NCBI RefSeq assembly: GCF_013201075.1
Contig: NZ_CP053710.1
Location: 1-64,000 of the forward strand
Source of the DNA: Lichenicola cladoniae
Lineage (GTDB): Bacteria > Pseudomonadota > Alphaproteobacteria > Acetobacterales > Acetobacteraceae
DNA length: 64,000 nt
Reading direction: 5' to 3'
Numbering within the stretch: the first letter of the stretch is position 1; every line of letters starts with the position of its first letter. A program made the translations under genes and the position numbers. The notes under the pieces are model-generated. The model was given only the letters and a program-made list of their open reading frames with translations. It was not told where the DNA came from and made no database searches. Shown piece after piece: positions 38,752 through 51,659 of the stretch.

Positions 38752-39443
38752 GGTTCTGTTGCAGAATTTTGTTTAATGGCTGGGTGATGTCTACGGGCGA
38801 CAGTTTTTGGAGCTGGAGACGATGGGGAGCGTGGTGTAGAAGTCGACCACACGACGCTGCATCGCTGGGTGCTCAAGTATGTGCCGCTGTTGGAAAAGGC
38901 GTTCCTGGCGCGCAAGCGCCCGGTCAGTGGTAGCTGGCGGATGGATAAACCTACATACGGATCAAGGGCGTGTGGAAGTATCTGTATCGGGCGGTCGACA
39001 AGACGGGCGCCACGGTGGACTTCCTGCTGACCGCCAGGCGCGGCCGCAAGGCGGCGCTGCGCTTCTTGTTCAAGGCTGCGGCTCGGCATGGTGTTCCGAG
39101 GACGATAACCGTCGACAAGAGCGGCGCTAACACCGCGGCGATCGACAGCTACAACAGTGCGCACGACGCCGTGATCGAGACCCGCTAGGTCAAATACCTC
39201 CACAACATCGTCGAGCAGGACCACCGGGCGGTCAAACGAATGACCAGGCCGATGCTCGGCTTCAAGGGTTTCTGGTCGGCGGCGACCACGATCGCCGGTA
39301 TCGAGATCATGCACATGATCCGCAAAGGACAGTTGCACTCCGCAGGAAAGTTGCGTCCAGCGCAGCAGTTCTACTCCCTCGCAAAATAGAAAGAACAGAG
39401 CTCCGGCCCATACTCAAGCACGCCGAAACTTTGCAACAGAACC
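38752..39443 (+). mobile_element. defective IS6-family element, left copy
   Basis: 692 bp bounded by GGTTCTGTTGCAGAATTT and its inverted partner GGTTCTGTTGCAAAGTTT. Compared with the right copy (50864-51659, opposite orientation), it lacks 104 bp between two GGAGACGATGG repeats, carries the same 1-nt deletion beside the catalytic Asp (ATGGATAAACC where ATGGATGAAACC is expected) and an additional TAG in place of a Gln codon (ETR-stop-VKYL, 39186-39188). Transposase remnants: HTTLHRWVLKYVPLLEKAFL, YLYRAVDKTGATVDFLLTAR, DHRAVKRMTRPMLGFKGFWS. Non-functional. Confidence 0.9.
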
Positions 39444-39467
39444 GGATACGACGGTTTCTGTTTCTAC

Positions 39468-39507: not shown

Positions 39508-40425
39508 TTAGTCGTCCTCCGAGGCGCCGCGCGATCGCATCGAACTCAGCCGCTTCTTCATCGCCGCTAGCCGCTGCTGATGATCGCTGCCGCGTCGCAT
39601 CGCCACGCCGACTGCGAGGATGTCGACCAACACCAGCGCCGCCAACCGGGAGATGGTGGGCGTGTAGATGTCGGTATTCTCGAGCGTTTCAATGACCAGA
39701 AGACGGTCACAGAGCCGGCTCATTCGGCCGCCATCGCGTCCGCAGATCCCGAGCACGGTCGCGCCCGCCGCGCGCGCGGTCCGCATGATGTCGAGCAGGG
39801 CCGAGGTCTGCCCGGTATTGGAGATCGCGACCGCAACGTCGCCAGGCTGCATCATCGAGGCAGCAATGAATTGCTGATGCGAATCGGAATGCACAGTGCA
39901 CGGCACACCGAAGAGTGGAAACTTTTGTTGCGCGTCCGCGGCCACGATCCATGACGCGCCGAAGCCGAAGAACTCAATCCGACGGGCTTTTGCCAGCAAT
40001 TCGATTGCCTGCGCCACCGCCTCGTGGTCGAGCTGGCTGCGGGCCCAGTCCAGGCTGGTCATGGTATAGTCGAACACCTTATTAGTCAGCTTCTGCGGTG
40101 TGTCGGTCGCATCAAGCACTGACTGCGTCGCCGGCACGCCGAGCGCCACACTGTGCGCCAGCTTGAGCTTGAAGTCCTGGAACCCCTCGAAGCCGAGCGC
40201 AGTGCAGAAACGCATTACGGTCGGTTCGCTCACCCCCGCCTTGCGAGCAGTCTCCGCCACGGTCGCCACCAGGGCCGCCTGCGGATCTGACAAGATGTGC
40301 TCCCCGACCCGCCTGTCCGACTTCCTGAGCTCGGGCAAACGGACCAGGATCAACTCCATTACGTTGCGCCCGCTAGGTGCCGGCCGCTCACTCACTTTTT
40401 CTGGCCTGTCGTCGTCGCTCGGCAT
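39508..40425 (-). CDS. RpiR/MurR-type regulator
   Basis: 305 residues: N-terminal HTH_6 (VGEHILSDPQAALVATVAET; KAGVSEPTVMRFCTALGFEG) and C-terminal SIS sugar-phosphate isomerase-type domain (EFFGFGASWIVAADAQQKFP; DVAVAISNTGQTSALLDIMR). RpiR proteins sense phosphosugars and control the adjacent catabolic genes, here probably both divergent operons through the 44.6-kb region. Last gene of the leftward operon, 53 bases after the UlaG-like gene. Confidence 0.9.
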   Translation of the reverse strand: MPSDDDRPEKVSERPAPSGRNVMELILVRLPELRKSDRRVGEHILSDPQAALVATVAETARKAGVSEPTVMRFCTALGFEGFQDFKLKLAHSVALGVPATQSVLDATDTPQKLTNKVFDYTMTSLDWARSQLDHEAVAQAIELLAKARRIEFFGFGASWIVAADAQQKFPLFGVPCTVHSDSHQQFIAASMMQPGDVAVAISNTGQTSALLDIMRTARAAGATVLGICGRDGGRMSRLCDRLLVIETLENTDIYTPTISRLAALVLVDILAVGVAMRRGSDHQQRLAAMKKRLSSMRSRGASEDD

Positions 40426-40478
40426 CCTGTCCCTTTCGGTGCTGCATTCGTCTAGCCGCGGAGCGTGGAACTGCCGGG

Positions 40479-41366
40479 CTAGTGTCCAGCAACCGGCGAT
40501 ATTCGGCCGAGCAAGAAGGCGTGTTGCGCATCGGGGCGGAGAAGTCCAGGTCGAAGCCCGGCTTCGGCATGCAACAAAGCCACAGCGTCTATATTAGGAA
40601 TAGATGCTGTGTTGAAGGCGAAGAGCCCAAAATGATGCGGGATCAGCGTTGGGATTTTTGCTTCTACGCAGAGCGCTATCGCCTCGTTGAGCGTGAAGTT
40701 TCCAGGTATGCGGGCTGCTGCACGCTCTGAATCCCGACCGTTCACCGGCAACAGCGCGATTTGTGGCGCCAGCGCCCGCACCGTCTCAATCAGGCCAGGA
40801 TACGGGATGCAGTCGCCGCTATGGTAGAGCCGCACGCCGTCTGCCTCTATACCGTAGCCGAGGAAGCGGTGATGCCCCTGCGCATCCTGCTCCAACTGCT
40901 CGTGCGCGGCCGGCACAGGGTGTAGCACCAGATCAACCTCCGCCAACGGCCTCAACGCGCGCCCGGCGTCGGCGAAGACAACACGCGCTTTTGGTAGTCG
41001 GAGCGCCTCGGCATGGTCCTGCTCCGCCGCCGGTACCACGAACAGGCACTCGGGGTGGTCTGCTGCAAGCACAGGCAACGTGCCGGGATCCATGTGGTCG
41101 CCATGCCGGTGGGTGCAGACAACCAGATCGACACGGGGAAACAAGTCCGGATCGATCGGCGCCTGCATCATCCGCACGTGTGGAAACCGCGTGCCACGAT
41201 ATTTCACCGCGAGCGAATCCGACAAATAAGGATCTATCAGTACCACGGATGCACCGACCCGTAGCACGAACCCTGCCTGCCCCAGCCAGGCTAGCGCAAC
41301 GCCGTCATTGGGGCGGTCCAGCCAGTCTACCAGCCCGTCCGTCATCGCCATCAGAGTGATTGTCAT
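40479..41366 (-). CDS. UlaG-like metallo-beta-lactamase-fold hydrolase
   Basis: Start at ATG 41366 (MTITLMAMTDGLVDWL), overlapping the previous stop (ATGA); upstream in-frame sequence is a shadow. 295 residues with the metal motif THRHGDHMDP, then GYGIEADGVRLYHSGDCIPY and HHFGLF. The layout follows UlaG (L-ascorbate-6-phosphate lactonase), which opens a phosphosugar lactone. Here the substrate is probably a lactone or phosphate ester of the imported sugar (inference). Confidence 0.82.
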   Translation of the reverse strand: MTITLMAMTDGLVDWLDRPNDGVALAWLGQAGFVLRVGASVVLIDPYLSDSLAVKYRGTRFPHVRMMQAPIDPDLFPRVDLVVCTHRHGDHMDPGTLPVLAADHPECLFVVPAAEQDHAEALRLPKARVVFADAGRALRPLAEVDLVLHPVPAAHEQLEQDAQGHHRFLGYGIEADGVRLYHSGDCIPYPGLIETVRALAPQIALLPVNGRDSERAAARIPGNFTLNEAIALCVEAKIPTLIPHHFGLFAFNTASIPNIDAVALLHAEAGLRPGLLRPDAQHAFLLGRISPVAGH

Positions 41367-42310
41367 GCCATCGCTGACGCCCACGGCTGCCGCAACGCGC
41401 CGCGCAGATTTTCGACCGCAGCCACCGTAGCCCGCCGCACGCTTTCGTCTGTCAGGCCTCCGATATGCGGAGTCGCGATAACCCGTGGATGCGCCAGCAA
41501 GGCCGAAGGCGGCGGCGGCTCGACGGCGAATACGTCGGTCGCGTAGACGCCGACCCCGCCGCCCTGGAGCGCGTCCAGCATCGCGGTATCGTCCACCAGC
41601 GCGGCGCGCGCTGTATTCACCACCACGCACCCCGAACGCAGCCGGCCGATCGCCGACGCATCGAGCACCGCCGTCCCGTCCGGTGGTATCGGGCAATGTA
41701 GCGAGACGATGTCGGCCTCCTCCAGCACTTGCTTCAACCCGATCCAGGCGAAATCCCCCGACGGGGTGAAGCCATGATCCGGATACGGGTCGTAAACACG
41801 CACTCTGGCATCGAGCGCCAAAGCGAACTTGGCCACCAACCGTCCGATCGCTCCGCAGCCGATGAGCCCCAGCGTCCGGCCTTCGATCTCCAGCCCGGGA
41901 CGCCTCTGCCATACGCCACCCTTCAAGGCCGCGCTCTGTTCCGGAACATGCCGCAGCGCGCCCATCGCGAGCCCTATAGCCAGTTCTGCGACGCCGCGCG
42001 CATTGGCACCGGCGGCGCGCAGCACCATGATTCCAAGCCGTTCCGCGGTTTCGAGCGGCAGATTGTCTGACCCGGTGCCGTTGCGGCTGATCACTCGCAG
42101 CCCGTGCGCTGCTTCGAGTACACGCGGACTGACCGGCTCAACCCCTGCCAGCCAGCCGACGCAACCCGGCAGCAGTGACAGCAATGCCGCCTCATCAGGA
42201 GTTTCGCCTGGGCTGCTGAACACCAGCGTGTAGCCATCCTCCTCGAGCGCCAGCAGCGCTGGATCAGGATTGCGAGTTAGCGAACGCGGCGTGACCAGGA
42301 TACGGTTCAT
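41363..42310 (-). CDS. D-isomer-specific 2-hydroxyacid dehydrogenase
   Basis: Start at ATG 42310 (MNRILVTPRSLTRNPDPALL), overlapping the previous stop. 315 residues, two-domain PGDH type: ISRNGTGSDNLPLETAERLG, Rossmann GLIGCGAIGR, active-site Arg in VVVNTARAALVDD, Glu in DVFAVEPPP, and His in ATPHIGGLT. The family uses NAD(P) to interconvert 2-hydroxy and 2-keto acids. Fits an oxidation or reduction step of a sugar-acid route. Confidence 0.88.
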   Translation of the reverse strand: MNRILVTPRSLTRNPDPALLALEEDGYTLVFSSPGETPDEAALLSLLPGCVGWLAGVEPVSPRVLEAAHGLRVISRNGTGSDNLPLETAERLGIMVLRAAGANARGVAELAIGLAMGALRHVPEQSAALKGGVWQRRPGLEIEGRTLGLIGCGAIGRLVAKFALALDARVRVYDPYPDHGFTPSGDFAWIGLKQVLEEADIVSLHCPIPPDGTAVLDASAIGRLRSGCVVVNTARAALVDDTAMLDALQGGGVGVYATDVFAVEPPPPSALLAHPRVIATPHIGGLTDESVRRATVAAVENLRGALRQPWASAMA

Positions 42311-43278
42311 CGTGCCGGTCTCGGGTGACGCGGTGCGCCGCCGGCAAGCTTCGAAAGGAGGTCGAACCGCGGTCCCGATGACGGGATTTCGACTGCAAAC
42401 ACCTCGGCGATTACCTGGGTCCAGCCATGCAGGAAGTAATTCCAGCCATCGAATGTTGTGAGTCCGGATGCCGCCGCCTGTCCCTCCGCGCGATCGAGGA
42501 ACAGCAGGTCGCCGCGGTAGTTTAGCTCCCACACCAAGCCGCCGACCGGGAAGCGCGCTTCGGCGCCGAGAGGCGAGCCGAGGCGGTCCTTGCCGAGACC
42601 GGTGGCGTTGACGACTAGCGATCCGTCCGGCAGCGCGTGCAGGATCTCATCGTTGCGGTCGGTCGAATTCGCTAGCACGTAGTCGATGGCGACATCGGTA
42701 GCGATGCCGGCATGGAAACGCCGCAGCCCCTCAAGACGCAAGGGGTTCACATCGGAGACGATGATGCGGTTTGGACAAACCTTGCCACGACCGGCGGACA
42801 TCAGGTTCCAGGTAATCGCGGTGGTAGCGCCGCCGGCGCCGATCAGGAACGCATCGCCGCCGGCATGATGCCAATGTCCCTCCGGCACGATCGCGTCGAG
42901 CGCCAGACGAGCCGAGATCGGGTCCTTGGCATGGCCGATCAGCCTTCCGTCCCGCTTGGACAAGCAGCTTACCTCATGAAGCGATTGGGCATGGGGATCG
43001 AGGGCGTCGAACAGGTCGGCTGCCGCATGCAGAAGATCGATCTTGTGCGCCGTCACCAGCGCGCCCATCGAGAACGGGTCGTCGCGAACGAACGACACCA
43101 CGTCGCGATAATCCTTAGCCGGCGCGTGCAGAGGGAGGTTGATGCCGTTGATGGCGCACTGTCCAAGCCCCAGCACCTCCGCCCAGCGCGGGAAGATCGT
43201 CATGATCGACGACTGCCCCGTGCTCACGCCGATGAAGTGCAGTGTGGGCACGGCAGAGGCAGGCGGACGCTGCATCAT
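42307..43278 (-). CDS. shikimate-dehydrogenase-like protein
   Basis: 323 residues. N-terminal substrate-binding domain (FIGVSTGQSSIMTIFPRWAE; GALVTAHKIDLLHAAADLFD has the catalytic-type Lys) and a Rossmann domain with FLIGAGGATTAITW and VVNATGLGKD. Longer than AroE (about 270) and far from aromatic genes, so more likely a paralogue for a polyol or sugar acid. Overlaps neighbours on both sides by 4 bases. Confidence 0.8.
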   Translation of the reverse strand: MMQRPPASAVPTLHFIGVSTGQSSIMTIFPRWAEVLGLGQCAINGINLPLHAPAKDYRDVVSFVRDDPFSMGALVTAHKIDLLHAAADLFDALDPHAQSLHEVSCLSKRDGRLIGHAKDPISARLALDAIVPEGHWHHAGGDAFLIGAGGATTAITWNLMSAGRGKVCPNRIIVSDVNPLRLEGLRRFHAGIATDVAIDYVLANSTDRNDEILHALPDGSLVVNATGLGKDRLGSPLGAEARFPVGGLVWELNYRGDLLFLDRAEGQAAASGLTTFDGWNYFLHGWTQVIAEVFAVEIPSSGPRFDLLSKLAGGAPRHPRPAR

Positions 43279-43943
43279 CCCGCCTCCCTAACACGTCTGG
43301 CGAGACGCACCGCTTCCTCCGCATTGCGGCGTATTCCCGCCCAGTCGCCTTCGCGGATCATGACGCGGCTGGCGATCCAGGTGCCACCCACTGCGGCTAC
43401 CGCAGGTTCCCTTATCCACTCTTCGAGATTCGTAATCGATACGCCGCCTGTTGGAATAAAACGCAGCCCGTGCAGCGCGAACGGGGCTGAAATCGCTCGC
43501 AGGAATGCGATGCCGCCGGCCGGCATCGCCGGGAAGAACTTGAAGGTGCGGATGCCGCGTTCAAGACCGGCCTGCAGATCGGACGCGGCCATCGCGCCCG
43601 GGACGTAGGCGAAACCCGCCTCGGCCGCCGCATCTAGCATCGCCGCGCTGAGGCCGGGAGCAAGCGCGAACCTTGCGCCGGCGTCGATCGCCCGGCGTAG
43701 ATCGACAGGCGAGATGATCGTGCCGGCGCCAACCACCATGTCTGTGTAGCGCTCGGCGATCCTGGCGATCACCTCCGCTGCCGCACGGGTACGGAATGTC
43801 ACCTCGATCACCCCAAGACCGGCTTCCAGCAAAGCTTCCGCCAGCGCATCCGCCTCCGCCACGCCGTCAATTTCCACGACCGGAATGACTCCAAATGCGG
43901 TCGCCTCTAGCAGCGTCTCTCCGGTGTCGATCATCTTAGACAT
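43275..43943 (-). CDS. KDPG/KHG-type aldolase
   Basis: 222 residues, class I aldolase of the KDPG family: Glu47 in VIEVTFRTRAA, VGAGTI (71-76), and Schiff-base Lys135 in FKFFPA. They split 2-keto-3-deoxy-sugar acid phosphates into pyruvate and an aldehyde. KDPG members usually have PAE after the Lys; here PAM, so the donor may differ (for example a non-phosphorylated or shorter sugar acid). Overlaps the upstream gene by 8 bases. Confidence 0.88.
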   Translation of the reverse strand: MSKMIDTGETLLEATAFGVIPVVEIDGVAEADALAEALLEAGLGVIEVTFRTRAAAEVIARIAERYTDMVVGAGTIISPVDLRRAIDAGARFALAPGLSAAMLDAAAEAGFAYVPGAMAASDLQAGLERGIRTFKFFPAMPAGGIAFLRAISAPFALHGLRFIPTGGVSITNLEEWIREPAVAAVGGTWIASRVMIREGDWAGIRRNAEEAVRLARRVREAG

Positions 43944-44544
43944 GTCCAGGCGCCGTATTACGCGGGCGGTAGCGCGGGTTCGGTACCTGTTTCCAGCCGC
44001 CTGCGCCGTCGTCGACGATCAGGTCCCGCATGCCGCCGGCACGGGCGATGATCTCATAATCCTGGCCGGCGTCGGCTGGATAGCAGAAGAGGGTAACTAG
44101 CGGCTCGCTGCCGACATTGACGCTGCGATGGATCCAGTGCGGCGCCACATAGACGACGCTGTTCGGCGTCATCTCCTCCACCCGGACGGTGCCGTCGGCA
44201 AGCTCCATCAGCATGATGCCGTGACCTGACTGGCAAAAATAGATCTCAGGCCGATCACTCACGGCGTGGATATGACCACGTGTGAAGATGAACTCGGTGC
44301 CGACACGGCCTGCATACAAGGTGCTAGTGCCGAAGATGATGTCGCCTGCATTGTCGGACGGGCGAAACTCATCGACTTGGTATGCGACCTCGCTCCCGCG
44401 CGTGCCGGCGATGGCCGCGAAGGCCGCCTGATCCAGGAACAGCCCGTCTAGGTCGTCATAGCGTTTTTCGTAACGGCGCGTACGGCCGGTCATCTCGCCG
44501 GTTCCAGGGGCAATAAGAACGGCGGCAGGAAGAGGAGACGACAT
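43936..44544 (-). CDS. cupin-type glucose-6-phosphate isomerase-like protein
   Basis: Start at ATG 44544 (MSSPLPAAVLIAPGTGEMTG). 202 residues, single cupin fold of the archaeal-type phosphoglucose isomerase family: TEFIFTRGHIHAVSDRPEIY gives the metal His-x-His and Glu, and HWIHRSVNVGSEPLVTLFCY a further His. Family members isomerise aldose/ketose 6-phosphates. First gene of the leftward operon, so probably an early step. Confidence 0.85.
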   Translation of the reverse strand: MSSPLPAAVLIAPGTGEMTGRTRRYEKRYDDLDGLFLDQAAFAAIAGTRGSEVAYQVDEFRPSDNAGDIIFGTSTLYAGRVGTEFIFTRGHIHAVSDRPEIYFCQSGHGIMLMELADGTVRVEEMTPNSVVYVAPHWIHRSVNVGSEPLVTLFCYPADAGQDYEIIARAGGMRDLIVDDGAGGWKQVPNPRYRPRNTAPGHV

Positions 44545-44752
44545 TGATAGGCCTTTCAACACGTACAAGCGCAACATGTTCCGGTAGTCCTATTACGCGC
44601 TTGTCTCGGAGATCAACCACAATTTGCTCTTTTTGCGCTGCAAAATCGCAAATATAGCTTGTAAGGCGGCCGTTAAACTGGTGTTTGCTACCTTGTAAGG
44701 AGGCAAAGCTACGGAGATGGTCCGGCGATGCCCCACAGGGAGAACACCATCT
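44545..44752. promoter_or_regulatory. divergent control region of the sugar catabolic genes
   Basis: 208 bp between the two operons. A direct repeat CTTGTAAGG occurs at 44658-44666 and 44692-44700 (34 bp apart); the second is a small palindrome CCTTGTAAGG. TTTTTGCGCTGCAAAATCGC (about 44634-44653) is a second inverted-like element. RpiR regulators bind repeated half-sites here. Shine-Dalgarno caggga precedes the binding-protein start. Confidence 0.55.
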
Positions 44753-45724
44753 ATGAAACCGATCCTAGTGGCAGCGGTCCTGACCGGTGTCGCAGCACTC
44801 GCGGCTGCCCCAGCGCAGGCCAAGGCGATCAAGATTGGCCTGTCGATGCTGACGCAAAACGCGCCCTACTACGCGGCGCTGCAGGCGGCGGTGCTGAAGG
44901 AGGCCAAGGTGCTAGGTGCCACGGTCGTCACCGCCGACGCCAACAACGCGATGCTCAAGCAGATATCCGACGTCGAGGACATGCTGTCGCAGAACATCGA
45001 CGTGCTCATCATGGATCCCAAAGATGCCAAGGGCTTAGTCGGCGTGACTAAGGAGGCTGCGTCGGCGCATGTTCCTGTGATCATCGTCGACAGCTCGATT
45101 GATCCGTCGGCGCCGGTGTTGACGACGATCCAGTCCGACAACGCCGAGAACGGCAGGCTGATCGGCGACTGGCTGATCGGTCAGGTCAAGGACAAGGACC
45201 TGCATATCGCCCTGCTCAGCGGCGACCAGGGCAACGTGGTCGGCGAGGCGCGGCGCGACGGGGTCATGAGCGGCATTATCGAAGCGCAGTTGCGTCAGGT
45301 CGGTCATGCCGGCTTCAGCGTGGTCGGCCAGGGCTGGGGTGGCTGGACACAGGAAGGCGGCGTCAAAGCGATGGAAGACCTGATGACCGCGCATCCCGAT
45401 ATCAACGCGGTCCTGGCCGAGAATGACAGCATGGCGCTCGGCGCGATGCGGGCGATCCAGGATGCCGGCAAGGCGGACAAGAACATCCTGATCTTCGCCG
45501 CCGCCGACGGCCAGAAGGAGGCGGTAAAGTTGATCCAGGACGGCAAGTACGGCGCCACCGGCCTGAACGATCCGGCAGTCATCGGCAAGATGGCGACGGA
45601 CCTTGCGGTGAAGGTCGCCAACGGGCAGACGCCGCCTGGCATCGCCAAGATCACCTTCACGCCGCCGGTGGCGATCACTAAGGCTAACGCTGCGCAATAC
45701 TACAAGCCCGACGCGCTGTTCTAG
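44753..45724 (+). CDS. sugar ABC transporter periplasmic binding protein
   Basis: Start at ATG 44753. 323 residues with a signal peptide (MKPILVAAVLTGVAALAAAP, cleavage after AQA) and a ribose-type periplasmic binding fold: KIGLSMLTQNAPYYAALQAA, IDVLIMDPKDAKGLVGV, VLAENDSMALGAMRAIQDAG. Binds the substrate sugar in the periplasm and hands it to the permease. First gene of the rightward operon. Confidence 0.93.
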   Translation: MKPILVAAVLTGVAALAAAPAQAKAIKIGLSMLTQNAPYYAALQAAVLKEAKVLGATVVTADANNAMLKQISDVEDMLSQNIDVLIMDPKDAKGLVGVTKEAASAHVPVIIVDSSIDPSAPVLTTIQSDNAENGRLIGDWLIGQVKDKDLHIALLSGDQGNVVGEARRDGVMSGIIEAQLRQVGHAGFSVVGQGWGGWTQEGGVKAMEDLMTAHPDINAVLAENDSMALGAMRAIQDAGKADKNILIFAAADGQKEAVKLIQDGKYGATGLNDPAVIGKMATDLAVKVANGQTPPGIAKITFTPPVAITKANAAQYYKPDALF

Positions 45725-45738
45725 CCCGAGGCGGTACG

Positions 45739-47316
<1,578 letters not shown>

Positions 47317-48312
47317 ATGGCCACGACTCATAGTCTCGAAGCCACTGCTCCGGGCACCGCGAAGCGACGGTTCGATTTTCGATCGTTCGCGGCCAACTAC
47401 AGCACGATCGCGATCTTCGTGGTGTTGGTGCTGGTCGCGAGCTTTATCTCAACCAGTTTTTTGAGCAGCCGAAACATCGAGAACGTGCTGCGCCAAGTGG
47501 CCGGCACGGGCGTGATTTCGATGGGCATGCTGCTGGTGATCCTGACTGGCGGAATCGACCTTTCGGTCGGCTCTGTGGCCGCCCTCGGTAGCATCGTCTG
47601 CGCCTCGCTGCTGACCTCGATGTCGCTCTGGACAGCTGTGCCGATCAGCCTCGCCGCCGGCGGCGCACTCGGCACGATTTCCGGATATTTCGTGGCAGTA
47701 CGCAGGATGCCGTCCTTCGTCGTGACGCTTGCCGGCATGACAATCGCCCGCGGCCTGGCCCTGATCGTATCGGAAGGCCGTCCGATCTTCATGGCCGACA
47801 ACGGTGCCTGGCTCGGTGATGGCTTCAACCGTGGCAGCCTGCTTGGCATCCCGCTGCCGGTGGTGTTGATGCTGTTGGTGTTCGGCGCCACTGCCTTCGT
47901 GCTGCGGCTGACCGCCTACGGCCGGCTGATTGTCGCGATCGGCTCCAACAGCGAGGCTGTGCGACTGTCCGGCGTCCGAGTCACACCCAGGATCTTCTCG
48001 GTTTACGTCGTGTCCGGCGTGCTGTCGGCGCTGGCTGGGATCATCATTACCGCTCGTTCCGGCGTCGGCTCGCCGGTGGTCGGCATCGGCATGGAGCTCG
48101 ATGTGATCGCCGCAGTGGTGATCGGCGGCGCCAGCCTGATGGGCGGGCGCGGCACGGCGCTGAATACCTTGATTGGGGTGCTGACGCTGGGGGTGATCGG
48201 CAACATTATGAACCTGCTGAACGTGCCGGGATATCATCAGGAAGTGGTCAAGGGCGTCATCATCCTGGTGGCGGTGCTGCTGCAATCCTCAGTCTGGCCG
48301 CGCCGAGCCTGA
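47317..48312 (+). CDS. sugar ABC transporter permease (RbsC type)
   Basis: 331 residues, 8-10 hydrophobic segments (IAIFVVLVLVASFISTSF; LVILTGGIDLSVGSVAALGS; VVLMLLVFGATAFVLR; GVIILVAVLLQSSVW). GGIDLSVG and GGASLMGGRGT are family signatures. Its TGA overlaps the kinase ATG (TGATG). Confidence 0.94.
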   Translation: MATTHSLEATAPGTAKRRFDFRSFAANYSTIAIFVVLVLVASFISTSFLSSRNIENVLRQVAGTGVISMGMLLVILTGGIDLSVGSVAALGSIVCASLLTSMSLWTAVPISLAAGGALGTISGYFVAVRRMPSFVVTLAGMTIARGLALIVSEGRPIFMADNGAWLGDGFNRGSLLGIPLPVVLMLLVFGATAFVLRLTAYGRLIVAIGSNSEAVRLSGVRVTPRIFSVYVVSGVLSALAGIIITARSGVGSPVVGIGMELDVIAAVVIGGASLMGGRGTALNTLIGVLTLGVIGNIMNLLNVPGYHQEVVKGVIILVAVLLQSSVWPRRA

Positions 48313-49871
48313 TGAACGCCCCAATGCAGCGCGACCTACTTCTGGCAATCGATGTTGGCACCGGCAGCGTGCGGGCGGCCCTGCTGACTGAGGCCGGGGA
48401 AACGCTGGCGTTCGCGGCTGCGGAACACGAGCAGATCGTGCCGCACTATGGCTGGTCCGAACAGCGGCCGGCCGATTGGTGGACCGGCGCCGTCGCGGTG
48501 ATCCGGCGCGTGCTGGACATGCTGCCGGGTGCCGCCGCGCGTGTCGCCGCGATCGGCGCCTGCGGACAGATGCATGCGACGGTGCTGGTGGATGGAAACG
48601 GTCAGCCGGCACTCGAAGCCGTGCCGCTCTGGAACGACAAGCGCAATCGTACGCTGCTCGACACGTTCATGCAGGAGCAGCCCTGGGAAGCGCTGCTGCC
48701 GGTCGCCGGCAACCCGCCTTCGGTCGCGTGGTGGGGCTTCAAGCTGCAATGGCTCAAGGCGCACCGACCGGAGGCGTATGCACGCACCGCGCTGGTCCTG
48801 AGCCCGAAGGACTGGATCAATTTCAGGCTGACCGGTGCCGTCGCGATCGACGCACCGGAAGCCTCCTGCACCTATCTGTTCGATGTCGGGCACGGAACCT
48901 GGAGCGATGCGCTCGCGCAACGTCTGGGGCTGGACCCGAAGCTGTTGCCGCCGATCCGTGAACCGTACGACGTCCTGGCCGGGATCTCGCGGCAGGCGGC
49001 TGCGGAAAGCGGGTTGCATGAGGGCACGCCGGTGGTCGTCGGGATCAGCGACTATCCGGCGGCGCTGCTCGGGTCGGGCGTGATCGAGCCGGGGCTGGCA
49101 TCCGACGTGACCGGAACCTCGACATTGCTGACCTTGTGCACGACCGCACCGGTGCTGCATCCGGTGATCAGCAACGTGCGCGGAGCGCTGCCGAACTGGT
49201 CCGCCTTCACCATCCTGGATGCCGGCGGCGATGCAATGCGCTGGGCCAGGCGCGCGTTGCATGAAAACCATTACGAATACGACCGGATCGTCTCGCTCGC
49301 GGCCGGCGTGCCGGCTGGCGCCGGCAGCCTGGTGTTCCTGCCTTACCTGAACGGCGAGCGGCTCGGCGAGCGCGCGAACTCGCGGGCGCAGTTCATCGGC
49401 CTCACCAGTGGCCATGGCGCCGGGCACCTGCACCGCGCGGTCATGGAAGGGGTCGCCTTCGCGGCGGCGCGCAACCTGCGGATCATGGAAGCAGCCGGCA
49501 ACCGGCTGGACCGTGTCATCGCCGCCGGCGGCGGAGCGAAAACGCCGCTCTGGCTCGAGATCAAGGCCAGCCTGTACGGATGCCCGATCCTGACCACCGC
49601 GGCGGAGGAAAGCGGCGTGCTCGGCTGCGCGATGCTGGCCGGCACCGGGATCGGGCTCTATCCGGACCTGCCGGCGGCGGCATCGCGACTGGTGCGCTTC
49701 ACCGGCGAAATCCAGCCCAATCCGCGCTGGATGGAGACCTATGCGCGCCTCGGTCCGGTGTTCGACCACGCCTACACCAACAGCGAACGCTACTGGACCC
49801 TGCTCGAGGCAGCGGAAGCCGCAGAAGCCGCAGAAGCAGCGGCCGGTCCGGACCCGCAAACCAACCACTAG
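48312..49871 (+). CDS. FGGY-family carbohydrate kinase (xylulokinase-like)
   Basis: 519 residues. ATP-binding actin-like fold: N-terminal LLAIDVGTGSVRAALLTEAG, GACGQMHATVLVDGNG, catalytic-site SDVTGTSTLLTLC and C-terminal ADENINE-type VIAAGGGAKTPLWLEIKASL. Residue Asp in VGISDYPAALLGSG is likely the base. Tail of EAAEAAEAAEAAA repeats. Phosphorylates a ketose or polyol delivered by the ABC importer; the exact sugar is unknown. Confidence 0.9.
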   Translation: MNAPMQRDLLLAIDVGTGSVRAALLTEAGETLAFAAAEHEQIVPHYGWSEQRPADWWTGAVAVIRRVLDMLPGAAARVAAIGACGQMHATVLVDGNGQPALEAVPLWNDKRNRTLLDTFMQEQPWEALLPVAGNPPSVAWWGFKLQWLKAHRPEAYARTALVLSPKDWINFRLTGAVAIDAPEASCTYLFDVGHGTWSDALAQRLGLDPKLLPPIREPYDVLAGISRQAAAESGLHEGTPVVVGISDYPAALLGSGVIEPGLASDVTGTSTLLTLCTTAPVLHPVISNVRGALPNWSAFTILDAGGDAMRWARRALHENHYEYDRIVSLAAGVPAGAGSLVFLPYLNGERLGERANSRAQFIGLTSGHGAGHLHRAVMEGVAFAAARNLRIMEAAGNRLDRVIAAGGGAKTPLWLEIKASLYGCPILTTAAEESGVLGCAMLAGTGIGLYPDLPAAASRLVRFTGEIQPNPRWMETYARLGPVFDHAYTNSERYWTLLEAAEAAEAAEAAAGPDPQTNH

Positions 49872-49886
49872 ATCGGAGACCATGTC

Positions 49887-50672
49887 TTGGCGTCGACACG
49901 CTACCTGAACAAATACGACCTGACCGGCCGGACCGCGGTGATCACCGGCGGTGGCCGGGGGATCGGCCTTGCCTGCGCGGAAGCTCTTTCGGAGGCCGGC
50001 GCGCGCATCGTGCTGCTCGAGCGCGACGAGGACGCGGCACGTTCAGGCGCTGCCAGCCTGTCGGCATCGGGGGCGGATGTTTCCTGGCGATTGGTCGATG
50101 TCGTCGATCCCGACGCACTCCAGGCAGCCGCCGACGCGATCGAACGCGAGATCGGTGGGGTCGATATCCTAGTCTGCTGTGCCGGCATCGCCATCAGCGG
50201 CGTGGCCGCCGAAGTCGCCACCGCCGAACAGTGGCGCCAGGTCATCGACATCAATCTGAACGGGGTGTTCTGGTCGTGCCAGGCGTTCGGGCGCGCCATG
50301 CTGGAACGCGGTCGCGGCGCCATCGTCAACATGGGCTCGATGTCCGGCCTGGTGGTGAACCGCCCGCAGGAACAGGCTTCATACAATGCGTCCAAGGCGG
50401 CGGTGCACCAGCTCACCCGGTCACTCGCCGCCGAATGGGCGAAACGCGGGGTGCGCGTCAATGCGGTGGCACCGACCTACATCGACACGCCGATGACCCG
50501 CTACGGCATGCAGGATGAAACCCTGAAGCACGCCTGGCTGGACGCCACGCCGATGGGCCGGGTCGGACGCACCGATGAAGTCGCCTCAGTCGTGCTGTTC
50601 CTGGCCTCCGAAGCGGCCAGCCTGCTGACCGGCAGCATCGTCGTCGCCGATGCTGGATACACCTGCTGGTAA
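49887..50672 (+). CDS. short-chain dehydrogenase/reductase (TTG start)
   Basis: Begins TTG 49887 with GGAG at 49875-49878; the ATG at 49882 is out of frame. 261 residues: TGGGRGIG cofactor motif, CAGIAI, catalytic Ser (NMGSMSG), YNASK and C-terminal GSIVVADAGYTCW. Likely oxidises or reduces the sugar/polyol before or after phosphorylation. Confidence 0.88.
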   Translation: MASTRYLNKYDLTGRTAVITGGGRGIGLACAEALSEAGARIVLLERDEDAARSGAASLSASGADVSWRLVDVVDPDALQAAADAIEREIGGVDILVCCAGIAISGVAAEVATAEQWRQVIDINLNGVFWSCQAFGRAMLERGRGAIVNMGSMSGLVVNRPQEQASYNASKAAVHQLTRSLAAEWAKRGVRVNAVAPTYIDTPMTRYGMQDETLKHAWLDATPMGRVGRTDEVASVVLFLASEAASLLTGSIVVADAGYTCW

Positions 50673-50834: not shown

Positions 50835-50863
50835 TTCAAACTTTCGGTGCTCGGTGAGGTTCC

Positions 50864-51659
50864 GGTTCTGTTGCGAAGTTTCGGCGTGCTTGAGTATGGG
50901 CCGGAACTCTGTTCTTTCTATTTTGCGAGGGAGTAGAACTGCTGCGCTGGACGCAACTTTCCTGCGGAGTGCAACTGTTCTTTGCGGATCATGTGCATGA
51001 TCTCGATACCGGCGATCGTGGTCGCCGCCGACCAGAAACCCTTGAAGCCGAGCATCGGCCTGGTCATTCGTTTGACCGCCCGGTGGTCCTGCTCGACGAT
51101 GTTGTTGAGGTATTTAACCTGGCGGGTCTCGATCACGGCGTCGTGCGCACTGTTGTAGCTGTCGATCGCCGCGGTGTTAGCGCCGCTCTTGTCGACGGTG
51201 ATCGTCCTCGGAACACTATGCCGAGCCGCAGCCTTGAACAAGAAGCGCAGCGCCGCCTTGCGGCCGCGCCTGGCGGTCAGCAGGAAGTCCACCGTGGCGC
51301 CCGTCTTGTCGACCGCCCGATACAGATACTTCCACACGCCCTTGATCCGTATGTAGGTTTATCCATCCGCCAGCTACCACTGACCGGGCGCTTGCGCGCC
51401 AGGAACGCCTTTTCCAACAGCGGCACATACTTGAGCACCCAGCGATGCAGCGTCGTGTGGTCGACTTCTACACCACGCCCCCCATCGTCTCCTTGACTAG
51501 GCGGTAATTCAACGGATACGCCACATACCAGCGAACACCCCACAAGATCATGTCACGCTCGAAGTGGCTGCCTTTGAACGCGATCACCATCGTCTCCAGC
51601 TCCAAAACTGTCGCCCGTAGACATCACCCAGCCATTAAGCGAAATTCTGCAACAGAACC
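50864..51659 (-). mobile_element. defective IS6-family element, right copy (inverted)
   Basis: 796 bp, ends GGTTCTGTTGCGAAGTTT (50864) and AAATTCTGCAACAGAACC (51659). Transposase, read from the right: MVIAFKGSHFERDM, WGVRWYVAYPLNYRLVKETM, then a missing G in a G-run (frameshift at about 51481), HTTLHRWVLKYVPLLEKAFL, SGSWRMD, a second 1-nt deletion at the DET motif (about 51363), then YLYRAVDKTGATVDFLLTAR through IMHMIRKEQLHSAG to TAG. Two frameshifts, so inactive. The second is shared with the left copy. Confidence 0.9.

What the first reader, a model, noticed from the sequence alone, without database searches (positions are those of the whole stretch)
39508..50672. Possible undescribed sugar or sugar-acid pathway
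The set RpiR, UlaG-like lactonase, 2-hydroxyacid dehydrogenase, shikimate-dehydrogenase-like, KDPG-type aldolase, cupin phosphosugar isomerase, ABC importer, FGGY kinase and SDR does not match a pathway I recognise. No dehydratase is present although the aldolase type normally needs one. The operons are divergent around one control region, indicating one function.
Basis: partly seen in the sequence, partly recalled or inferred. Interest (0 to 1): 0.8.

Follow-up and report, generated by a model that had tools for sequence, protein, structure and literature searches.

The report
Undescribed sugar-alcohol breakdown gene cluster
A block of eleven genes, found with variations in many unrelated bacteria, looks like an undescribed route that imports a sugar alcohol and splits it into two three-carbon units without the dehydration step such routes normally need.

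Summary
In detail: all eleven genes lie at the stated coordinates as two tightly packed divergent operons. They form a conserved module. The AroE-like gene was found in 80 further loci across many phyla; in 75 of 83 long loci the cupin isomerase lies within 8 kb, usually with a sugar kinase. Non-orthologous swaps suggest the chemistry: UlaG-like and PTE-family hydrolases replace each other (33, 24, never both, of 83 loci), as do NAD- and FAD-linked 2-hydroxyacid dehydrogenases (48, 18, never both). Inferred route: polyol, ketose, ketose-6-P, aldose-6-P, phospholactone, phosphoaldonate, 2-keto acid, KDPG-type cleavage. The host and 10 of 19 other carriers searched lack Edd over cut-off. The regulator is HexR-like, and 9 of 43 control regions carry a site like the KDPG-responsive RccR site (not the window's own), so KDPG is the likely intermediate. 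A 3-deoxy-hexulose or -hexitol is then the simplest substrate (inferred, untested). The binding protein's closest solved relative was, from memory, crystallised with D-talitol. No description was found in the papers searched. The window copy is flanked by inverted IS6-family elements; a diverged second copy lies on another contig.

The parts
38752..39446 (.). left copy of an IS6-family element (or remnant), inverted relative to the right one
   Evidence: inverted repeats 38815-39446/50861-51492 (632 nt, 99%) and 38752-38807/51604-51659 (96%)
39508..40425 (-). RpiR/HexR-type regulator (HTH_6 + SIS)
   Evidence: best NCBIfam model HexR 264 bits (cut-off 296); best PDB chains 8k3b/8ju9 E 2e-64
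40479..41366 (-). UlaG-like metallo-beta-lactamase-fold hydrolase, inferred phospholactonase; HRHGDH metal motif
   Evidence: the start codon overlaps the stop of the preceding gene
41363..42310 (-). D-isomer 2-hydroxyacid dehydrogenase (NAD type), inferred phosphoaldonate 2-dehydrogenase
   Evidence: replaced by a FAD-linked GlcD-like enzyme in other loci
42307..43278 (-). AroE-fold dehydrogenase of an unnamed family, inferred aldose-6-phosphate 1-dehydrogenase
   Evidence: no Pfam hit; Lys79 and Asp119 invariant in 34 rows; model pLDDT 91.4; Foldseek E 5e-17 to shikimate dehydrogenases
43275..43943 (-). KDPG/KHG-type aldolase (Eda)
   Evidence: TIGR01182 211.9 bits, cut-off 156; Lys135 and Glu47 kept in 40 of 40 cluster Edas
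43936..44577 (-). cupin phosphoglucose-isomerase family protein, inferred ketose-P/aldose-P isomerase
   Evidence: PF06560 162.8 bits; solved glucose-6-phosphate isomerases E 1e-40; GHIH...PE and HWIHRS motifs
44631..44645 (.). palindrome TTTTGC-N3-GCAAAA in the divergent control region, candidate operator
   Evidence: exact in window, L114 and L011; one mismatch in L010 and L020
44717..45724 (+). CUT2-type sugar/polyol binding protein
   Evidence: PDB 4ry9 E 4.9e-94
45739..47316 (+). CUT2-type ABC transporter ATPase
47317..48312 (+). CUT2-type ABC transporter permease
   Evidence: position between ATPase and kinase; 91% identical segment in L010; not scanned against a family library
48312..49871 (+). 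FGGY kinase, xylulokinase-like, inferred ketose kinase
   Evidence: (XylB 315 bits, cut-off 380)
49887..50672 (+). SDR dehydrogenase, inferred polyol dehydrogenase
50861..51659 (-). right IS6-family copy with transposase piece 50918-51337
   Evidence: PF13610 DDE_Tnp_IS240 106 bits, inverted repeat

Best explanation
A dehydratase-free catabolic route for a sugar alcohol or ketose. The CUT2 ABC importer takes up a hexitol-like polyol; the SDR oxidises it to a hexulose; the FGGY kinase makes the 6-phosphate; the cupin isomerase turns the ketose-phosphate into an aldose-phosphate; the AroE-like enzyme oxidises that at C1 to a phospholactone; the UlaG-like enzyme opens the lactone; the 2-hydroxyacid dehydrogenase oxidises C2; and the Eda-type aldolase splits the resulting 2-keto acid. 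The regulator senses that last intermediate. Because it appears to be KDPG and no Edd exists in the host, the imported compound is most simply a 3-deoxy-hexitol or 3-deoxy-hexulose, giving pyruvate and glyceraldehyde-3-phosphate. Shown: gene content, conservation, swaps, absence of Edd over cut-off, operator match in relatives. Inferred: every catalytic step, their order and the substrate.
For: The core recurs in many phyla. Lactonase slot: UlaG-like in 33, PTE-family in 24, both in 0 of 83 loci (100-bit threshold); the one PTE representative scanned has phospho-furanose lactonase as best model (136 bits, cut-off 630). C2-oxidation slot: NAD type in 48, FAD GlcD-like in 18, both in 0 of 83; the FAD type arose in at least two places of the AroE-like tree, with L009, too short for the count, as a possible third. 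The host has no Edd over cut-off; 11 of 20 carriers searched lack it. Four of these, G002, G014, G015 and G016, have a single Eda over cut-off, at the place of the cluster by the contig coordinates. Of 28 searched genomes whose cluster lacks Eda (48 of 83 loci lack it), 25 hold one elsewhere over cut-off, against 6 of 14 control genomes. Cluster Edas stem from more than one ordinary Eda lineage, as if any KDPG aldolase serves. The regulator is HexR-like; sites within one mismatch of TGTARTWWWAYTACA lie upstream of the isomerase in 9 of 43 regions against 1 of 2150 shuffles and resemble the 15-bp RccR sites for which KDPG lowers affinity (PMC5489143, passages). Several loci with kinase and lactonase show no SDR or Zn-ADH match within 8 kb (L014, L016, L017), which leaves the lactone-forming step to the AroE-like enzyme. 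4ry9 relatives (69-77%) sit in this cluster type in 15 of 17 fetched stretches.
Against: No enzyme has been assayed. The window's own control region does not hold the RccR/HexR-type site (4 mismatches), and none of the 16 Burkholderiaceae regions comes within two mismatches. A psicose-3-epimerase-like TIM barrel was matched near the core in six loci (of three scanned, two scored 184 and 200 bits against a cut-off of 300, the third nothing); that would make no sense for a 3-deoxy sugar. 17 of 83 loci have neither 2-hydroxyacid dehydrogenase and 26 of 83 neither main lactonase. In Chloroflexota the core stands beside HxlA/HxlB instead. 9 of 20 carriers do have Edd. The swap counts include many close relatives. 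The 4ry9 ligand is recalled, and D-talitol is not a 3-deoxy compound. No 3-deoxy-hexitol is an obvious abundant nutrient.
Confidence: 0.5

Rival explanations
1. Same order of steps but an ordinary hexitol such as D-altritol/D-talitol (via psicose or tagatose) is the substrate. The 2-keto-hexonate-6-phosphate keeps its 3-hydroxyl, and the Eda-type aldolase splits it to hydroxypyruvate and glyceraldehyde-3-phosphate.
For: 4ry9, recalled as a D-talitol complex, is the closest solved binding protein, and window and 4ry9 agree at 10 of 12 pocket positions recalled from ribose-binding protein (read by eye off). Six loci have a psicose-3-epimerase-like match near the core. The 2-hydroxyacid dehydrogenase could double as a hydroxypyruvate reductase.
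Against: None of the recurrent neighbour families that were scanned is a glycerate kinase or hydroxypyruvate isomerase over cut-off; single neighbours were mostly not annotated. Cluster Edas are of ordinary lineages with unchanged catalytic residues. RccR-type operators in relatives point to KDPG.
Confidence: 0.22
2. An ordinary sugar is oxidised to a 6-phosphoaldonate, and a dehydratase encoded elsewhere makes KDPG (a classical Entner-Doudoroff tail); the 2-hydroxyacid dehydrogenase has a side role such as epimerising C2.
For: 9 of 20 carriers have Edd over cut-off.
Against: 11 of 20 do not, among them the host; G002, G011, G012, G013 and G016 show one ILVD/EDD-family match only and G014 none. 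FAD enzymes of this type oxidise, which fits badly with a reductive epimerisation (established knowledge). Unrelated dehydratase families were not searched.
Confidence: 0.12
3. A cyclic polyol (inositol or quercitol type) is the substrate: the AroE-like enzyme oxidises the ring and the UlaG-like enzyme opens it, as IolN does in Thermotoga (recalled).
For: AroE enzymes act on carbocycles. Some loci hold Gfo/Idh and Zn-ADH genes; one representative of each has IolG (272 bits, cut-off 355) and IolM (203, cut-off 450) as best model.
Against: Both genes together occur near the core in 10 of 83 loci and neither is among the eleven genes here. A kinase plus a phosphoglucose-type isomerase suits an acyclic sugar phosphate.
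Confidence: 0.08
4. A known route (L-ascorbate, apiose, 2-ketogluconate, sulfoquinovose) with divergent enzymes.
For: UlaG-like and 2-hydroxyacid dehydrogenase families occur in ascorbate and 2-ketogluconate routes (established knowledge).
Against: UlaG model 26 bits, cut-off 306; no phosphotransferase or other Ula gene among the eleven; the 2-ketogluconate route needs Edd (recalled), which the host lacks over cut-off. Apiose and sulfoquinovose enzymes were not searched for separately.
Confidence: 0.05

Closest known systems
Entner-Doudoroff pathway (phosphorylative)
   Same: isomerase, 1-dehydrogenase, phospholactonase and Eda aldolase order (inferred here); HexR-like regulator
   Different: no Edd in the host; a D-2-hydroxyacid dehydrogenase in its place; AroE-like instead of Zwf; FGGY kinase; UlaG-like or PTE-family lactonase instead of Pgl
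HexR/RccR regulators of Pseudomonas
   Same: full-length similarity to 8k3b/8ju9 (that these are HexR is recalled); in 9 of 43 control regions a site like the 15-bp RccR site
   Different: sits in a dedicated sugar cluster; the window's own control region has another palindrome; misses the HexR model cut-off
2-ketogluconate (Kgu) pathway
   Same: 2-hydroxyacid dehydrogenase and Eda on phosphorylated hexonates (recalled)
   Different: here inferred to oxidise rather than reduce; lactone step and isomerase added; no Edd
D-altritol pathway of Agrobacterium (Wichelecki 2015; not held; seen as a reference entry and in passages of PMC12193009)
   Same: polyol binding protein, SDR-type polyol dehydrogenase, sugar kinase (partly recalled)
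   Different: that route goes through D-tagatose; lactone and 2-keto acid steps are not part of it as far as recalled
Shikimate/quinate dehydrogenases and 5-ketofructose reductase (7cok)
   Same: fold, Lys/Asp pair; the reductase shows that the fold can serve a hexulose
   Different: 14-24% identity in the 50 listed Foldseek alignments; no Pfam match

Membership tests
Entner-Doudoroff pathway | 6-phosphogluconate dehydratase Edd in the host | tested here: not met
   best host match 226.6 bits, cut-off 708
Entner-Doudoroff pathway | KDPG aldolase Eda | tested here: met
   211.9 bits, cut-off 156
L-ascorbate (Ula) pathway | L-ascorbate-6-phosphate lactonase UlaG | tested here: not met
   26.1 bits, cut-off 306
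Shikimate dehydrogenase (AroE) | passes AroE family models | tested here: not met
   no Pfam hit; best NCBIfam 38 bits, cut-off 413
Shikimate dehydrogenase (AroE) | fold and Lys/Asp catalytic pair | tested here: met
   equating Lys79/Asp119 with AroE Lys65/Asp102 is from memory
Cupin phosphoglucose isomerase | PF06560 and metal-binding histidines | tested here: met
   activity not testable
Xylulokinase XylB | TIGR01312 cut-off | tested here: not met
   315 bits, cut-off 380; the c3-type kinase of L054 does pass, 390 bits
HexR | NF008451 cut-off | tested here: not met
   264.4 bits, cut-off 296
HexR/RccR | RccR-type operator in the window's control region | tested here: not met
   best site has 4 mismatches; met in 9 of 43 control regions
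HexR/RccR | KDPG as effector | not testable with these tools
   only the operator match in relatives bears on it
IS6-type composite transposon | two IS6-family copies flanking the cargo | tested here: met
   whether the elements are whole or mobile was not tested

The most novel reading that the evidence does not exclude
This is the first recognised bacterial pathway for 3-deoxy-hexuloses or 3-deoxy-hexitols, the reduced forms of the glycation product 3-deoxyglucosone. It reaches KDPG by two oxidations instead of a dehydration and uses an AroE-fold enzyme as a sugar-phosphate 1-dehydrogenase. 3-deoxy-D-arabino-hexitol differs from D-altritol (D-talitol) only by the missing 3-hydroxyl, which would explain a D-talitol-bound relative of the binding protein.
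Probability: 0.3. Interest if true: 0.8.

Novelty: new variant of a known kind. Interest (0 to 1): 0.62.

Why it matters
A module found from Pseudomonadota to Actinomycetota, Bacillota, Chloroflexota and Atribacterota would be a widespread, unnamed branch of carbon metabolism. It would give a function to an AroE-like family without a Pfam match, add a route to KDPG that needs no dehydratase, and, if the 3-deoxy reading holds, show how bacteria recycle sugars damaged by glycation. The gene set makes the question directly testable with seven enzymes that should be soluble.

Tried and rejected
Edd as a housekeeping helper was rejected for the host because none is over cut-off. A hydroxypyruvate-yielding version was kept as a rival. 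SMP-30-like (c27) and PF01182 (L048) neighbours were first taken as alternative lactonases and dropped: L048 passes as glucosamine-6-phosphate deaminase (281 bits, cut-off 237) and c27 scores weakly. Two Amidohydro_2-type neighbours with lactonase models as best match (L009 180 of 400 bits, L041 141 of 500) are only suggestive. HxlA/HxlB in Chloroflexota loci could not be tied to the route. The promoter and terminator scan of the control region found nothing. Only the AroE-like protein was modelled. Paper searches for 4ry9/VEIS_2079, talitol, 3-deoxyglucosone and the enzyme set listed no matching pathway.

Limits of the counts: the TTTTGC-N3-GCAAAA palindrome was found in the same regions in which it was then counted, so its count is no independent test; the TGTARTWWWAYTACA consensus came from memory but was tried after a recurring GTAGTTA word was seen. 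L032 and L037 were put into by mistake, as their clusters do hold Eda.
Full report
What is there. Families: RpiR with SIS domain, metallo-beta-lactamase-fold hydrolase, D-2-hydroxyacid dehydrogenase, Eda, cupin PGI (PF06560), CUT2-type importer, FGGY kinase, SDR (the permease was not scanned). The AroE-like protein has no Pfam match and only weak AroE model scores. Its model (pLDDT 91.4) matches shikimate/quinate dehydrogenases by Foldseek (E 5e-17) and, lower down, 5-ketofructose reductase, a hexulose enzyme of the same fold. Lys79 and Asp119, which I equate with the AroE catalytic pair from memory, are invariant in 34 aligned rows.

Conservation. A scan of one genome per species for the AroE-like protein confirmed 99 stretches and kept the best 80. 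By tblastn (E 1e-6) the window's isomerase matches in 70, FGGY in 67, the 2-hydroxyacid dehydrogenase in 52, Eda in 40, RpiR in 33, the binding protein in 20 and the UlaG-like protein in 18 of these 80. I added 20 stretches from whole genomes. Of these 100 loci, 83 are at least 13 kb long and hold the AroE-like gene; the other 17 were dropped before the counts. In the 83 the isomerase lies within 8 kb in 75. Hosts include Pseudomonadota, Actinomycetota, Bacillota, Chloroflexota, Atribacterota, Cyanobacteriota, Deinococcota and Verrucomicrobiota. Among 60 genomes (the host, its relatives and class members) 2 carry the gene, the host and one other, and none of four congeners does.

Swaps that suggest the chemistry. 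UlaG-like and PTE-family hydrolases exclude each other: 33, 24, both 0, neither 26 of 83. Both families contain phospholactonases (established knowledge), and the PTE representative scanned has phospho-furanose lactonase as best model, well below cut-off. The NAD-type 2-hydroxyacid dehydrogenase and a FAD-linked GlcD-like enzyme (246 bits, cut-off 568) exclude each other: 48, 18, both 0, neither 17. In the AroE-like tree the FAD type lies in two separate places, Burkholderiaceae and Paracoccus L020. L009, too short for the count, also has it. Close relatives inflate these counts, so the number of independent events matters more than the Fisher values (6e-9 and 3e-7). Eda occurs only with the NAD type: in 35 of 48 loci with it and 0 of 35 without it.

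No dehydratase. The host has no Edd over cut-off, and 11 of 20 carriers searched lack it. In G002, G014, G015 and G016 one Eda only is over cut-off, and by the contig coordinates each lies just upstream of the AroE-like gene; these genomes show one, no, two and one ILVD/EDD-family matches. G014 is a draft bin. I searched 30 genomes for Eda: 27 have one over cut-off. Two of the 30 (L032, L037) hold it in the cluster, which leaves 25 of 28 genomes with an Eda-less cluster, against 6 of 14 control genomes (Fisher 0.002); 48 of the 83 loci are Eda-less, so 20 were not tested. Cluster Edas do not form one clade; at least 5 changes are forced, with some long branches. Lys135 and Glu47 are kept in 40 of 40. 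This fits an ordinary Eda substrate.

Regulation. The regulator resembles 8k3b and 8ju9 over its whole length (that these are HexR is recalled) and comes near the HexR model cut-off. Upstream of the isomerase, TGTARTWWWAYTACA (consensus recalled, tried after a recurring GTAGTTA word) occurs with at most one mismatch in 9 of 43 scannable regions (a 44th, L009, was too short) against 5 of 880 random stretches of the same loci and 1 of 2150 shuffles, in Pseudomonadota and Actinomycetota. Two 15-bp sites (TGTAGTTTTACTACT, TGTAGTAAAACTACA) bind RccR of Pseudomonas fluorescens, and KDPG lowers that affinity (PMC5489143, passages seen; the same paper gives HexR another consensus, TTGT-N7-8-ACAA). None of the 16 Burkholderiaceae regions comes within two mismatches. 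The window and its nearest relatives have instead TTTTGC-N3-GCAAAA (44631-44645): exact in 3 and one mismatch in 2 of 43 regions, against 7 of 2150 shuffles, a motif drawn from these same regions. So the KDPG link is a match in relatives, not in the window.

Transport. The binding protein's best solved relative is 4ry9 (E 4.9e-94), which I recall as the D-talitol complex of a Verminephrobacter protein. Read by eye off the alignments at twelve ligand-contact positions recalled from ribose-binding protein, window and 4ry9 agree at 10 (differences Leu/Lys and Tyr/Phe). Relatives of 4ry9 (69-77%) were found in 17 of 398 genomes of the family of L038 (Caballeronia), at 18 places. I fetched 17 of the 18 places, and 15 of these 17 stretches hold the AroE-like cluster; one of the other two begins at a contig end.

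Interpretation. The order polyol, ketose, ketose-6-P, aldose-6-P, phospholactone, phosphoaldonate, 2-keto acid, cleavage uses every enzyme once. Loci with no SDR or Zn-ADH match within 8 kb (for example L014, L016, L017) still have the lactonase, so the lactone most likely comes from the AroE-like enzyme. If the last acid is KDPG, oxidation at C2 requires a 3-deoxy-hexonate phosphate, hence a 3-deoxy-hexose upstream; that is a redox argument, not an observation. The main rival keeps the 3-hydroxyl and yields hydroxypyruvate. Psicose-3-epimerase-like matches in six loci (all below cut-off where scanned) speak for it.

Context. The cluster is bracketed by inverted IS6-family copies on a 354-kb contig, while a second complete copy lies at about C1:41-53 kb on the 4.8-Mb contig. 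The two copies share 68-90% of bases per 400-base block over 39.4-48.2 kb, but FGGY and SDR (48.2-50.6 kb) 89-98%, which suggests gene conversion or a later exchange.

Noticed in passing
window 38752-39446 and 50861-51659: Inverted IS6-family copies flank the whole cluster like a composite transposon.
   Followed up: partly
window 48201-50600 versus L114: FGGY-SDR segment 89-98% identical between the two copies in the genome while the rest is mostly 68-83% (two blocks at 87 and 90%); possible gene conversion.
   Followed up: partly
L114 5311-6087: The second copy carries another SDR next to the first, which the window copy lacks; similar second SDRs sit in Burkholderiaceae clusters.
   Followed up: no
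L065, L071, L072, L074, L084: Chloroflexota loci pair FGGY and AroE-like, mostly with the isomerase, with HxlB and mostly HxlA (RuMP enzymes, over cut-off in L072) instead of the dehydrogenase and aldolase.
   Followed up: partly
L072 11578-13434: A D12-class DNA methyltransferase and an EcoRV-family endonuclease lie just downstream of the AroE-like operon.
   Followed up: no
L053, L043, L057: Cohnella/Paenibacillus clusters add a TIM-barrel gene (psicose-3-epimerase-like in L053 and L057); L053 also an L-fucose isomerase and a DUF2961 protein.
   Followed up: partly
G000:C1:981946-982533 (L109, L115): A third Eda over cut-off in the host, away from both clusters, in a genome without Edd over cut-off; its source of substrate is unexplained.
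   Followed up: no
L117 and other Burkholderiaceae loci; L014, L016, L017, L020, L021, L041: A HAD-family sugar phosphatase often lies near the FGGY kinase, perhaps to clear a dead-end sugar phosphate.
   Followed up: no
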